This document shows, in pieces, positions 6,634 through 10,179 of a stretch of 64,000 nucleotides of DNA. How positions within the stretch are numbered: position 1 is the first letter of the stretch; every line of letters starts with the position of its first letter. Source of the DNA: Alphaproteobacteria bacterium (GTDB lineage Bacteria > Pseudomonadota > Alphaproteobacteria > UBA6615). The stretch is from positions 340,264 through 404,263 of the forward strand of contig JAJFIX010000031.1 of the NCBI GenBank assembly GCA_021774575.1, in the 5' to 3' direction. The notes beneath the pieces were generated by a model. The model was given only the letters and a program-made list of their open reading frames with translations, was not told the origin of the DNA and did no database searches. The position numbers and the translations under genes were made by a program.

Positions 6634-6649
6634 AGCCAATTCCGTAAGC

Positions 6650-7003
6650 TCAGCGCCGCAAAATTCGTGTCACCAGAAGGCCCAGCGCCGCCGCGCCAAT
6701 GAGTGCTAGGGCAAATGTCTTCCCCTTGATCCTGTCCCGACGCACACGAATTCCTTCGGCTTCCAGCACCGCGACCGTTTCATCCGCCTTGGTGATAATA
6801 TCTCCGGTTTCAATTTCCAAAGCCCTCGCCGTCCGGCCGAGCTGATCGACGGTCAAGGCCGATCTGCCCGTTTCTATCCGTGACCATGTTGATTGCCCAA
6901 CCCCCGCCGCAGCCGCAAGGTCGGCCTGGCGAATGCCTTTGTCTTGGCGCAAAAAGACAAGCACCTGGCCAACAATGGCGGCATAGGTCGTTTCCGTCGC
7001 CAT
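6650..7003 (-). CDS. XRE-type HTH protein with C-terminal membrane anchor
   Basis: Read from the ATG at 7003, the product is 117 residues. An XRE/Cro-type helix-turn-helix (about residues 8-65) contains the recognition-helix segment GVGQSTWSRIETG. A short linker follows, then one hydrophobic segment (about 96-113) and a basic tail, RILRR. Such a layout implies a DNA-binding protein tethered to the inner membrane. The frame stays open to 7174, but the extra N-terminus is Gly/Ser/Pro-rich and contains a 12-bp duplication, so I prefer the shorter start. It is divergent from the LRAT-like gene at 7301, and the intergenic space contains an inverted repeat. The regulatory target is unknown. Confidence 0.75.
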   Translation of the reverse strand: MATETTYAAIVGQVLVFLRQDKGIRQADLAAAAGVGQSTWSRIETGRSALTVDQLGRTARALEIETGDIITKADETVAVLEAEGIRVRRDRIKGKTFALALIGAAALGLLVTRILRR

Positions 7004-7081
7004 CGCGCCAACCGACAGTCCGTCGGGAGACAAAGCCCCCGGTTCGGGAAAACTTGGAGAAGAATTCCCGCCTCCGCCACC

Positions 7082-7105
7082 CCTGTCGCCACTCCTGTCG
7101 CCACC
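7082..7105. repeat. 12-bp tandem duplication
   Basis: CCTGTCGCCACT (7082-7093) is followed directly by CCTGTCGCCACC (7094-7105), 11 of 12 identical. It lies upstream of the preferred start of the XRE-type gene. Confidence 0.75.
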
Positions 7106-7229
7106 CAGTGACGGTTCACGTTTACCAGCAATCATCACCGCCCCCAGAATTAAACCGAGCATTGTAAAAGGCAAGTAGGTAAATTACAGCTCGTTAAACA
7201 GCGCATTGCTCAGCTTGACAGCATCCATC

Positions 7230-7252
7230 ATATATGCGCAACGTGCATATAT
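7230..7252. promoter_or_regulatory. Inverted repeat, candidate operator for divergent pair
   Basis: ATATATGC (7230-7237) and GCATATAT (7245-7252) are perfect 8-bp arms around a 7-bp spacer. The repeat lies 48 bp before the LRAT-like start codon and upstream of the divergent XRE-type gene. A consensus -35 hexamer TTGACA is at 7215-7220, but no -10 sits at a proper distance. The operator role is inference. Confidence 0.45.
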
Positions 7253-7300
7253 CTATAGAATTGAAATCACCGCAAGATTTTATTATAGGAAAATTACCGC

Positions 7301-7846
7301 ATGTCAGGTCACGACAAATTACGCACGAACATGTCGGCCAAACGCAACTGGGGCTTAAAAGCCAGTGCGCCAGACCAGCCAACGCCACAGGCTGCACCAA
7401 GCCACGCTACAATTGGGTTCTCGACGGACCTGCCCTACCCACCCGGCGCAATATTGGCCACTGACCGAGGGTTTTTTACCCATTACGGTATTGCCGGTGA
7501 TAGCCGCGTCGCGGGGGAACAAAGCGTCATCTCTTGTTCCCGCCGTCGACGCGGTTGTGCAGAAGAAAGCCTTAGCGCCTTTGCCAACGGAACCAGAGTA
7601 ACTTGTCATGGGTTGATCGGGAACCTTGCCCCCTTTGACATTCTGGCCCGCGCGCGGGCCGACATTGGATCAACGTGGCATCTTATGACCGACAATTGCG
7701 AGCATCACGTCACCCGTGCCTGTGGCCTGAAACCGAAAAGCCCACAAATACGCCGTGCCGCCGCAGGAACGATGGCGATTGCTGTGCTCGCCCTCGTTCC
7801 CGGCTTGCGGCTGGCGCTGCTCAAGGCTGCAGCCACCGGCGTATAG
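7301..7846 (+). CDS. LRAT-domain (NlpC/P60-like) protein with C-terminal anchor
   Basis: This 181-residue protein fits the LRAT/H-rev107 branch of the NlpC/P60 papain-like fold. An opening strand (YPPGAILATDRG) leads to the catalytic His in THYGIAGD (His61). The family box around the nucleophile is DNCEHHV, with Cys133 as the predicted catalytic residue. His before Cys is the permuted order known for LRAT proteins, which act as acyltransferases or phospholipases on lipids. Residues about 155-178 form a hydrophobic tail that could anchor it in the membrane, as in mammalian HRASLS proteins. An AGGA site precedes the ATG at 7301. Substrate and physiological role are unknown. Confidence 0.75.
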   Translation: MSGHDKLRTNMSAKRNWGLKASAPDQPTPQAAPSHATIGFSTDLPYPPGAILATDRGFFTHYGIAGDSRVAGEQSVISCSRRRRGCAEESLSAFANGTRVTCHGLIGNLAPFDILARARADIGSTWHLMTDNCEHHVTRACGLKPKSPQIRRAAAGTMAIAVLALVPGLRLALLKAAATGV

Positions 7847-7855
7847 CCTCTTTTT

Positions 7856-8839
7856 TTAGAGCCAAACTTTTTTGAGTTGCGGCGGGTCGTAGCGCTCTCC
7901 GGAAGCCGCCCCTTGCGGAAAGGCATCGGCCAAGGATTTCACCTCGTCATCGCTCAGTGTAATTTCCAGAGACGCAACATTTTCCTCCAGATATTTAACC
8001 TTTTTGGTCCCTGGAATTGGCACGATATTGCCGCGATGCGCCATTACCCAAGCAATTGCGATTTGCGCGGTGGTCGCGCCCTTATCGGCGGCAACGGCCT
8101 TAATTGCCTCCAAGAGGCCGAGGTTTTTTTCCATATTCTCGGCCATGAAACGCGGGTGGGCGCCGCGGCGGTCGCTTTCAGAAAATCCATCGGGATCGGT
8201 GATGGTCCCGGTCAAAAACCCACGACCGAGGGGCGCATAGGGCACAAAACTGATGCCAAGTTCTTCGCAGAGTGGTTGCACCTCTTCCTCAGTATCCCTG
8301 GTCCATAGAGAATATTCGGTTTGCAATGCGGAAATTGGGTGCTCGGCATGGGCCCGCCGGATCGTCTCGGGGGCGGCTTCAGAAAGGCCGAGAGTTCGAA
8401 TTTTTCCCTGTTCTTTCAACCGCACCATGGCGCCAATTGTTTCTTCAATCGGCACGTCCGGATCGACCCGGTGTTGGTAATATAGATCGATCGTATCGAT
8501 GCCCAGACGGCTCAAACTATCTTCGCACGCCTCTTGGACATAGTCCGGGCGACCATTCACGCCGGGGCCACCTTTTGCCGGAGGGACATTGCCAAACTTT
8601 GTTGCAATAACAAAATCTTGCCGGCAATCTTTAACCGTATTTCCGATTAAACTCTCGTTCGTTCCAAAGCCATATGCGTCAGCGGAATCGAGAAAATTGA
8701 CCCCCAAATCCCTGGCCCGCAATATGGTCGCCGCTGAGGCCTCATTGTCGCGCTCGCCATAGGCGGCCGACATGCCCATGCAGCCAAGGCCGATCTCTGA
8801 AACCGAAATATCCGAGTGTCCTAGTTTGCGTTGCCGCAT
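7856..8839 (-). CDS. Aldo/keto reductase
   Basis: A 327-residue NADPH-dependent aldo/keto reductase of (beta/alpha)8 fold. The catalytic tetrad is visible: Asp51, Tyr56 (DAYGFG), Lys81 (ATKFG) and His123 (YYQHRVD). The C-terminal part has the cofactor-binding segment VPIPGTKK. It most resembles the AKR13-type enzymes common in bacteria, which reduce aldehydes and ketones of broad range. It converges on the LRAT-like gene with only 9 bp between stops and is divergent from the GST gene. The specific substrate cannot be inferred. Confidence 0.93.
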   Translation of the reverse strand: MRQRKLGHSDISVSEIGLGCMGMSAAYGERDNEASAATILRARDLGVNFLDSADAYGFGTNESLIGNTVKDCRQDFVIATKFGNVPPAKGGPGVNGRPDYVQEACEDSLSRLGIDTIDLYYQHRVDPDVPIEETIGAMVRLKEQGKIRTLGLSEAAPETIRRAHAEHPISALQTEYSLWTRDTEEEVQPLCEELGISFVPYAPLGRGFLTGTITDPDGFSESDRRGAHPRFMAENMEKNLGLLEAIKAVAADKGATTAQIAIAWVMAHRGNIVPIPGTKKVKYLEENVASLEITLSDDEVKSLADAFPQGAASGERYDPPQLKKVWL

Positions 8840-9010
8840 AGCGCCTATATCCTCTCGCTGATTAAATCGATCGACACAAAATTTGTGCGTGGGCGCGCAC
8901 TATATGCCATACGCCATTTTGATGCCATCCAATGTGATTCCATTCCAACCAACATCCAACTATGATGCGCCACCAACCCTAATTTCCCCAATTTGCAAAA
9001 GGACAATTTG

Positions 9011-9628
9011 ATGGCAGACGTGACCCTCTACGGTATTGGTTTGAGCAATTACACGCGAACGTGCCTGTTGGCGCTCGAAGAAAAGGGTGTCGATTACGAA
9101 CTTGTCGAGACCATGCCCCAAACCGATGAGGCCCGCGCCCGTCACCCCTTCGGCAAAATACCGTCCCTCGCCCACGGCGATACGTCGATATATGAGACCC
9201 TTGGCATCTGCACGTATATCGATGCCGCCTTCGACGGCCCGGCCCTGACCCTCGAGACCCCCGCCGGCCACGCCAAAATGACCCAATGGATCAGCTGTTA
9301 TAATGACTATTACGACACATCCATGATCCGTGAAATCGTCATTCAACGGGTCCTGGTGCCCCGGCGCGGTGGCGAAACCGATGAGGCAGTGGTTGCTGCC
9401 GCCGCTGAACGGCTTGCTCCCAATCTCGACATACTCGACGCCGCCCTCGCCGCCTCGCCCTATCTGGCCGGAGACGGCTATAGCCTGGCCGACATGACAT
9501 TCCTGCCATCGGTTTTCTATTTTCAAAAAATGCCCGAGGGCAGTCTTCTGGAAACACGGCAAAACATCAATACATGGCTTGCGCGCTGCCTCGAACGGCC
9601 GTCGTCGGCAAAGATTTTTGCCGAATAG
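9011..9628 (+). CDS. Glutathione S-transferase family protein
   Basis: A 205-residue soluble GST. The thioredoxin-like N-terminal domain (residues 1-80) starts VTLYGIGLSNYTRT and has the cis-proline of the glutathione site in GKIPSLAH (Pro51), followed by an all-helical C-terminal domain. The ATG at 9011 has an AGGA ribosome binding site nine bases upstream. Such enzymes conjugate glutathione to electrophiles or act in stress response. No neighbour points to a specific substrate. Confidence 0.9.
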   Translation: MADVTLYGIGLSNYTRTCLLALEEKGVDYELVETMPQTDEARARHPFGKIPSLAHGDTSIYETLGICTYIDAAFDGPALTLETPAGHAKMTQWISCYNDYYDTSMIREIVIQRVLVPRRGGETDEAVVAAAAERLAPNLDILDAALAASPYLAGDGYSLADMTFLPSVFYFQKMPEGSLLETRQNINTWLARCLERPSSAKIFAE

Positions 9629-9629
9629 C

Positions 9630-9656
9630 GGCGCCGCCGATTAGACCTGCGGCGCC
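9630..9656. terminator. Hairpin between convergent genes
   Basis: GGCGCCGC (9630-9637) and GCGGCGCC (9649-9656) form a perfect 8-bp stem with an 11-nt loop, immediately after the GST stop and over the stop of the convergent gene. No T-tract follows, so termination is plausible but unproven. Confidence 0.4.
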
Positions 9657-10033
9657 CGATCACCACGCCAGTAGCGAACTACATCGGCAATATCGAAGAT
9701 CAATGAAAGTGCGTCGGCGGCGATCACGGCGGCAATAAATAGCCAAAGTGAGCTGCCGACTGCATTTTCCGACAGTCTGAATGCCAACCAGGGAACTAGT
9801 CCAAGCCAAGCGACATGCCCAACGCCAAGTAAGCGCACAAAGCCGTATTTGGCATAAAGCACCATCATGATCATCGCGCTGGCACCAAATACGATTAGCA
9901 CCGCGACCGCCTCGACAGATCCTAGAAAAAACAACGGCGCGACCATATTGACCGTCACCAAAACCAGTAACCAAAGCGGCCACGGCATCGGCAGGCGCAT
10001 TACGGCCCCCATAAACCCCAGCATCGTTTTCAT
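9641..10033 (-). CDS. Polytopic membrane protein, unknown function
   Basis: A 130-residue hydrophobic protein with three or four predicted membrane helices and a short basic C-terminal tail (RYWRGDRAPQV). I recognise no characterised family, although small integral membrane proteins of this build are common in marine alphaproteobacteria. It is convergent with the GST gene and divergent from purB. The start ATG at 10033 follows the weak purine run AGGAAAT. Confidence 0.7.
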   Translation of the reverse strand: MKTMLGFMGAVMRLPMPWPLWLLVLVTVNMVAPLFFLGSVEAVAVLIVFGASAMIMMVLYAKYGFVRLLGVGHVAWLGLVPWLAFRLSENAVGSSLWLFIAAVIAADALSLIFDIADVVRYWRGDRAPQV

Positions 10034-10179
10034 CGTCGCGATTTCCTTTTCGTTTGCCGCCTAGGTTTTAGGCTGGATACAGTCAAATAGTTGCAGACTC
10101 ACGCATTCCTTGCTGTAAAAATTTATCCGCCTGAATTTGGGCCAGGCCCGTTGCCCAGCATCTTAGGATATGACCCGAT

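What the first reader, a model, noticed from the sequence alone, without database searches (positions are those of the whole stretch)
6650..7846. Divergent pair: membrane-anchored XRE regulator and membrane-anchored LRAT-fold protein
Seen: a 117-residue XRE-type protein ending in one hydrophobic helix faces away from a 181-residue protein with LRAT-type His61 and Cys133 (DNCEHHV) that also ends in a hydrophobic helix. Between them is a perfect 8-bp inverted repeat (7230-7237 and 7245-7252). Known: LRAT/H-rev107 proteins act on lipids, and mammalian members are held by a C-terminal helix. Inference: a two-gene membrane unit in which a tethered regulator controls a lipid-acting enzyme.
Basis: partly seen in the sequence, partly recalled or inferred. 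Interest (0 to 1): 0.55.

Follow-up and report, generated by a model that had tools for sequence, protein, structure and literature searches.

The report
Mobile membrane-anchored regulator–lipid-enzyme gene pair
Two small back-to-back genes, one for a DNA-binding repressor and one for a bacterial cousin of human lipid-cutting PLAAT enzymes, both with a greasy tail that should hold them in the membrane, recur together with the same DNA switch between them in distantly related bacteria, which points to an undescribed mobile lipid-targeting module.

Summary
ORF 7301-7846(+) passes the Pfam LRAT cut-off; its model matches human PLAAT3 (Z 12.2, 2.5 Å over 95 residues). ORF 6650-7003(-) is an XRE protein with a hydrophobic C-terminal helix. 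The pair recurs: ten distinct divergent XRE–LRAT pairs, one on a Polaromonas plasmid, and two same-strand pairs; all 24 proteins have a hydrophobic tail. The window's inverted repeat recurs too: its half-sites TATGC-N7-GCATA fit the nine other intergenic regions with 13 mismatches in total against 31.2 ± 2.2 in simulated sequences (0 of 1000 as low), and spacer 7 stands alone. XRE and LRAT distances correlate (r 0.65, p 0.001). Relatives lack the pair in the same radC–purB slot, so it was probably acquired. Best reading: a mobile regulator–effector module in which a membrane-tethered XRE autorepressor controls a membrane-anchored lipid acyltransferase or phospholipase, perhaps for conflict or defence. 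Activity, toxicity, DNA binding and membrane insertion are untested; the third catalytic position is Ser, not His/Asn.

The parts
6650..7003 (-). XRE-family helix-turn-helix protein, 117 aa from ATG 7003, with C-terminal hydrophobic helix (residues 97-116, about 6656-6715)
   Evidence: Pfam HTH_31/HTH_3 above cut-off; AlphaFold2 model pLDDT 83, HTH core 85-97, helix 97-116 at low confidence; Foldseek ClgR/restriction-controller HTH fold; homologous over full length in other pairs
7004..7174 (-). possible N-terminal extension of the XRE ORF (TTG 7174, ATG 7162, ATG 7135); not matched in other pairs, probably not translated
   Evidence: open frame; codon-position GC not decisive
7230..7252 (.). 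palindromic operator ATATATGC-N7-GCATATAT; conserved core TATKC-N7-GMATA at 7233-7249
7301..7846 (+). LRAT-fold (PF04970) protein, 181 aa, His61 and Cys133, Ser78 at the third triad position, C-terminal hydrophobic helices (residues 148-165 and 167-179)
   Evidence: Pfam; model; fold match to human PLAAT3; His61 and Cys133 invariant in 8 of 8
6634..10179 (.). variable slot between radC and purB that holds the pair (plus an aldo-keto reductase, a GST-like gene and others); 3,546 bp here, 329-1,245 bp in the 10 relatives where both ends were seen

Best explanation
This is a compact mobile regulator-effector module. The LRAT-fold protein is a tail-anchored inner-membrane enzyme that forms an acyl-thioester on Cys133 and removes or moves acyl chains of phospholipids, in the manner of mammalian PLAAT enzymes. 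The divergently read XRE protein binds as a dimer to the palindrome between the genes, represses its own promoter and that of the enzyme, and is itself held at the membrane by its C-terminal helix, so that enzyme dose or membrane state feeds back on repression. Because such enzymes can damage membranes and the unit travels on plasmids and islands, its most likely use is in conflict (phage defence or element maintenance). Shown by computation: both families, the fold, recurrence of the pair, recurrence of the operator, the hydrophobic tails, co-variation, patchy distribution. Inferred: DNA binding, repression, membrane insertion, lipid activity, feedback, conflict role.
For: LRAT family and fold. 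Ten distinct divergent pairs: window; L015 (Polaromonas plasmid pH1NP1); L004 and L009; L027 (its LRAT frame is broken); L036, L037 (= L038, L039, L047), L040, L041; L048. In one search, 6 of 7 loci have the divergent XRE and the seventh (L042) starts inside the LRAT gene at the contig end. Two tandem pairs, L055 and L056, with HTH proteins that also end in a hydrophobic helix. Tails: 24 of 24 pair proteins 2.03-2.91; in the own-genome control only the window XRE among 22 HTH_3 ORFs, apart from the mis-picked frame of L105. Operator. Reverse search: in 384 Burkholderiales genomes the XRE profile finds 5 proteins at E <= 1e-12; the two best, and the only full-length ones, are the two with a divergent LRAT. 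Co-variation r 0.65, p 0.001, n = 9. Mobility and defence context: pair next to nuclease, helicase and methyltransferase genes and an integrase on pH1NP1; integrases near L039, L040, L041, plasmid actin near L041, AbiEi-like regulator near L039; absent from the conserved slot in relatives. Analogy for toxicity: Tox-Act1, a permuted NlpC/P60 phospholipase effector that needs its His and Cys (PMC12994826, passages).
Against: The third triad position is Ser78 here (Ser in most paired members, Cys in L036, His in L027) where PLAAT enzymes have His or Asn, so activity is not assured. L009 and L027 do not fit the operator at spacer 7 (L009 has a spacer-6 form), nor do the tandem pairs. Many LRAT genes have no such XRE neighbour: 10 of 13 matches, 11 of 13, 15 of 19, 10 of 10 (checked; flanks 1.5 kb; some genomes occur in more than one call; L051 has an XRE nearby that lacks a hydrophobic tail and is not divergent). 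No defence model matches the LRAT protein. The window's own neighbours (radC, aldo-keto reductase, purB) are ordinary. The hydrophobic helices are modelled at low to middling confidence. Only one plasmid record of 72,556 was found to carry the divergent pair.
Confidence: 0.5

Rival explanations
1. Membrane toxin-antitoxin-like pair: the XRE protein neutralises the LRAT enzyme by direct contact, helix to helix in the membrane, as well as repressing it.
For: Both partners carry a C-terminal hydrophobic helix in 12 of 12 pairs, also in the tandem form whose HTH is of another subtype; co-variation; plasmid and island carriage; weak likeness of the XRE to antitoxin HTHs such as HipB/Y4mF, below cut-off.
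Against: Divergent order is not the usual TA operon; no toxicity data; co-variation may reflect joint inheritance only.
Confidence: 0.2
2. Ordinary lipid-remodelling or lipoprotein-acylating enzyme with a dedicated regulator, used for membrane adaptation (for example cold or solvent stress), not for conflict.
For: LRAT-fold relatives remodel phospholipids (PMC4624172, passages) and the NlpC/P60-type LnsA takes part in lipoprotein N-acylation (PMC7387801, passages); one host is a glacier Polaromonas; window neighbours are metabolic.
Against: Very patchy distribution, 1 of 24 genomes in the family; recurrent integrases, plasmid genes and restriction-type genes nearby.
Confidence: 0.25
3. The LRAT protein is catalytically dead or a non-lipid enzyme and the pair is a regulatory or sensory switch at the membrane.
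For: Ser instead of His/Asn at the third triad position.
Against: His61, Cys133 and the NCEH motif are kept in 8 of 8 rows of A6, which would be odd for a dead enzyme.
Confidence: 0.1

Closest known systems
Mammalian LRAT/PLAAT (HRASLS, H-rev107) lipid acyltransferases
   Same: Pfam LRAT above cut-off, fold (Z 12.2 to PLAAT3 4dot), His and Cys, NCEH motif, hydrophobic C-terminal helix
   Different: Third triad residue Ser rather than His/Asn; prokaryotic; paired with an HTH regulator; about 20% identity
Tox-Act1 (Salmonella T6SS phospholipase effector with permuted NlpC/P60 fold; PMC12994826)
   Same: Same superfamily, His/Cys chemistry expected, acts on phospholipids
   Different: Tox-Act1 is secreted and has an immunity protein; here no secretion marker was seen and the partner is an HTH protein
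XRE-type control proteins (C proteins of restriction systems, ClgR) and CapH-like defence repressors
   Same: HTH fold (Foldseek hits 3f51, 2b5a, 3clc, 7t5u); small autorepressor with a local palindrome expected
   Different: Those listed are soluble (recalled); here a hydrophobic tail follows the HTH
Type II toxin-antitoxin pairs with HTH antitoxins
   Same: Small two-gene mobile unit with HTH partner
   Different: Divergent order in 10 of 12 pairs; both partners with hydrophobic tails; toxicity not tested

Membership tests
LRAT domain family (PF04970, permuted NlpC/P60 fold) | profile score above curated cut-off | tested here: met
   31.4 bits, cut-off 24.3
LRAT domain family (PF04970, permuted NlpC/P60 fold) | papain-like permuted fold | tested here: met
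   VIA Z 12.2, 2.5 Å, 95 residues to 4dot; Foldseek E 2.7e-5 to 4fa0
LRAT domain family (PF04970, permuted NlpC/P60 fold) | catalytic His before Cys in an NCEH motif | tested here: met
   His61 and Cys133 invariant in 8 of 8 (A6) and 10 of 10 (A8)
PLAAT subfamily | His or Asn as third triad residue | tested here: not met
   aligned position is Ser78 in the window (reading of the alignment, not of model geometry); triad described in PMC4624172
PLAAT subfamily | C-terminal hydrophobic anchor | tested here: met
   15-residue hydropathy 2.31; helices 148-165 and 167-179 in the model
PLAAT subfamily | phospholipase A1/2 or acyltransferase activity | not testable with these tools
   needs purified protein
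XRE/HTH_3 regulators | HTH profile above cut-off and HTH fold | tested here: met
XRE/HTH_3 regulators | binding to a cognate operator | tested here: inconclusive
   conserved palindrome between the genes in 8 of 10 divergent pairs with at most one mismatch; binding not measured
Type II toxin-antitoxin | antitoxin and toxin in one operon | tested here: not met
   window and nine other pairs are divergent; only L055 and L056 are tandem
Type II toxin-antitoxin | toxicity neutralised by the partner | not testable with these tools
   needs growth assays

The most novel reading that the evidence does not exclude
A new family of membrane-embedded self-controlled conflict systems: a tail-anchored PLAAT-like phospholipase kept silent by a tail-anchored repressor that senses the enzyme or the membrane through its own helix and releases the enzyme on infection, so that bacteria and mammals use the same anchored lipid enzyme to break down membranes. 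The two architectures with different HTH types would be two separate origins of the same partnership.
Probability: 0.25. Interest if true: 0.78.

Novelty: new variant of a known kind. Interest (0 to 1): 0.57.

Why it matters
Bacterial LRAT-domain proteins are annotated in many genomes but, as far as my searches showed, not explained. A conserved partner, a conserved operator and a shared hydrophobic tail make their role directly testable in E. coli K-12. If lipid activity is confirmed, the module would be a small bacterial counterpart of PLAAT-type membrane breakdown and an unusual case of a transcription repressor anchored by a C-terminal tail beside its own target enzyme.

Tried and rejected
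Chance inverted repeat: the 8-bp repeat alone is weak evidence (23 of 500 simulated stretches); rejected as an explanation because the half-sites and spacer recur. Coincidence of two neighbouring genes: rejected by ten distinct divergent pairs. Prophage module: window LRAT and L037 LRAT find no phage record; viral contigs hold LRAT relatives but no XRE of this type was found beside L031, L035, L045 or L032-L034, and two XRE scans of viral contigs gave none. NCBIfam, PHROGs and PADLOC do not name the LRAT protein. Wider regulon: one perfect and eight one-mismatch sites for ATATGC-N7-GCATAT in the genome against two for the control pattern; not followed. Promoter scan: one promoter-like site over the repeat on the minus strand, at chance level. 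The tree does not resolve whether the divergent pairs are one clade: 8 of 10 lie in a weakly supported group of 18 rows with 10 unpaired rows, and L009 and L027 fall outside it. Literature: ten searches found no paper describing an XRE-LRAT module in the held library (PMC, CC0/CC BY/CC BY-SA only); I saw listings for all and passages for the papers named in the text. The 2003 NlpC/P60 survey is not held and is known to me only as cited by others. The Polaromonas plasmid paper does not mention the gene ('lecithin' and 'acyltransferase' 0 times), nor does DefensePredictor mention LRAT; in a Vibrio study an LRAT gene clusters with defence genes (PMC12409351, one passage).

Full report
What is there. 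The window lies in a 3.5 Mb draft genome. On the plus strand 7301-7846 encodes a 181-residue protein with one Pfam match, LRAT (PF04970), 31.4 bits over a cut-off of 24.3. On the minus strand 6650-7003 encodes a 117-residue XRE protein with HTH_31 and HTH_3 over cut-off. The open frame of the XRE gene continues to TTG 7174, so its start is not certain; other members start close to the conserved Tyr that is residue 7 of the 117-residue form. The 8-bp inverted repeat at 7230-7252 is exact.

Fold. The LRAT model (10-row alignment, mean pLDDT 80.8, most core blocks 88-97, N-terminal 40 residues poorly modelled) has helices at 148-165 and 167-179 after the core. Foldseek finds human AdPLA/HRASLS3/PLAAT3/HRASLS2 first (E 2.7e-5 to 5.4e-5), and the second look gives Z 12.2 at 2.5 Å over 95 residues for HRASLS3 (4dot), followed by other PLAAT structures and, lower, Aichivirus 2A and E. 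coli YiiX. The XRE model has a confident HTH domain followed by a short strand and a C-terminal helix 97-116 of low confidence; its best matches are ClgR, an M. smegmatis XRE protein, C.BclI, C.AhdI and C.Esp1396I.

The pair recurs. The best plasmid match of the LRAT protein (36% identity) is on Polaromonas plasmid pH1NP1, where the gene lies back to back with a helix-turn-helix gene. A scan of the species-genome collection returned 7 loci; 6 have a divergent XRE and the seventh begins inside the LRAT gene at the contig end. Three of the six (L037, L038, L039) show identical proteins in bins labelled Acidobacteria, Proteobacteria and Planctomycetota and are counted once, with L047. Searches of whole genomes add L004 and L009, L027 (LRAT frame broken) and L048. 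That makes ten distinct divergent pairs with the window. L055 and L056 have a tandem form: an HTH gene upstream on the same strand, also ending in a hydrophobic helix, of a subtype nearer MqsA HTHs; L055's LRAT is not matched by PF04970 at E 0.01 and rests on the A6 profile. The XREs of divergent pairs align over their full length, tail included. Pairwise distances of XRE and LRAT correlate, r 0.65, permutation p 0.001, nine pairs (L027 left out).

Not every LRAT gene has the partner. With 1.5 kb flanks, a tail-bearing XRE lies beside 3 of 13 matches, 2 of 13, 4 of 19 (two divergent, two tandem) and 0 of 10 (examined; several genomes occur in more than one call). Conversely, an XRE profile search of 384 Burkholderiales genomes gives 5 proteins at E 1e-12 or better: the top two are the XREs of L047 and L048, the other three match at most 95 of 122 positions and have no LRAT gene in their loci. 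XREs from plasmids that resemble the window's (L116, L117, L118, L119) have no annotated LRAT neighbour in the stretches shown and no comparable tail; L043 has hydrophobic segments.

The operator. In 6 of 10 divergent intergenic regions TATKC-N7-GMATA occurs exactly, in 2 (L004, L048) with one mismatch, in L027 with two and in L009 with three. That consensus was fitted to these regions, so I tested the half-sites of the window alone, TATGC-N7-GCATA, on the nine others: 13 mismatches in total, against 31.2 (SD 2.2, minimum 23) in 1000 sets of first-order Markov sequences; spacers 0-6 and 8-14 give 23-32 on the real regions. L009 has the same half-sites at spacer 6 with one mismatch. L015 and L036 are close to each other and not fully independent. 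In the 64-kb window the consensus occurs only here.

Tails. All 12 HTH proteins and all 12 LRAT proteins of the pairs have a 15-residue C-terminal hydropathy maximum of 2.03-2.91. Among the 22 HTH_3 ORFs of the window's genome two pass 1.6: the window XRE and L105, a mis-picked frame. That these helices cross the membrane is inferred.

Where it sits. Relatives in the family keep sfsA-map-radC-purB as far as their loci reach. None of the 14 radC loci examined (L074-L087) holds either gene (L088, a partial match, was not examined), and PF04970 is found in 1 of 24 genomes of the family. The radC-purB gap is 329-458 bp in six and 1,144-1,245 bp in four relatives where both ends were seen, against 3,546 bp here. 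Other pairs lie near integrases (L039, L040, L041), a plasmid-type actin (L041), an AbiEi-like gene (L039), and on pH1NP1 beside nuclease, helicase and methyltransferase genes and an integrase. Pfam was run on ten chosen neighbours only.

Mechanism. PLAAT enzymes use a Cys-His-His/Asn triad; the C-terminal hydrophobic domain holds HRASLS3 at membranes and is needed for its activity (PMC4624172, passages). Tox-Act1 shows that a bacterial protein of the permuted superfamily can be a toxic phospholipase dependent on His and Cys (PMC12994826, passages). The window protein keeps His and Cys (A6 8 of 8) but has Ser78 where PLAATs have His or Asn, by reading the alignment. I therefore hold the lipid activity likely, not certain. 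The most economical mechanism is autorepression through the shared palindrome with both products held at the inner membrane; feedback through the tails and a role in conflict are inferences.

Novelty. The parts are known kinds. The combination (divergent, operator-linked, both partners with hydrophobic tails, mobile) was not found in the held literature by the ten searches listed under Tried and rejected; most subscription papers are not held, so this is weak evidence of absence.

Noticed in passing
L055:1501-2171 and L056:1079-1749: Tandem XRE-LRAT pairs in two Burkholderiales genomes: closely spaced genes on one strand, HTH of an MqsA-like subtype, both products with hydrophobic tails.
   Followed up: partly
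L123:878-1321: A related XRE with hydrophobic C-terminal stretch beside an integrase-like frame, with a different small divergent ORF instead of LRAT; tail-anchored XREs may control other effectors too.
   Followed up: no
L043:2566-3054: Aeromonas veronii 12-kb plasmid XRE with two hydrophobic segments next to short hypothetical genes.
   Followed up: no
L071:883-2016: LRAT-tail gene directly behind an ORF that by eye looks like an ImmA/IrrE-type metallopeptidase, with an HNH-like ORF beyond (no family search run).
   Followed up: no
L044:3848-5953: Aeromonas media plasmid: LRAT-DUF2787-RadC-YeeU order without XRE; a Vibrio study lists an LRAT gene clustering with DUF2787, integrase and defence genes.
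   Followed up: no
L037:747-1601 (also L038, L039, L047): The same XRE and LRAT proteins occur in contigs binned as Acidobacteria, Proteobacteria, Planctomycetota and a Burkholderiales genome; a spreading element or misbinned contigs.
   Followed up: no
G000:C45:309697-309715: A one-mismatch copy of the operator lies about 90 bp before the HTH of another XRE gene of the same genome (L097); nine such sites genome-wide against two for the control pattern.
   Followed up: no
window 6634-10179: The radC-purB interval is a variable slot in this family, of different length in different genera.
   Followed up: partly
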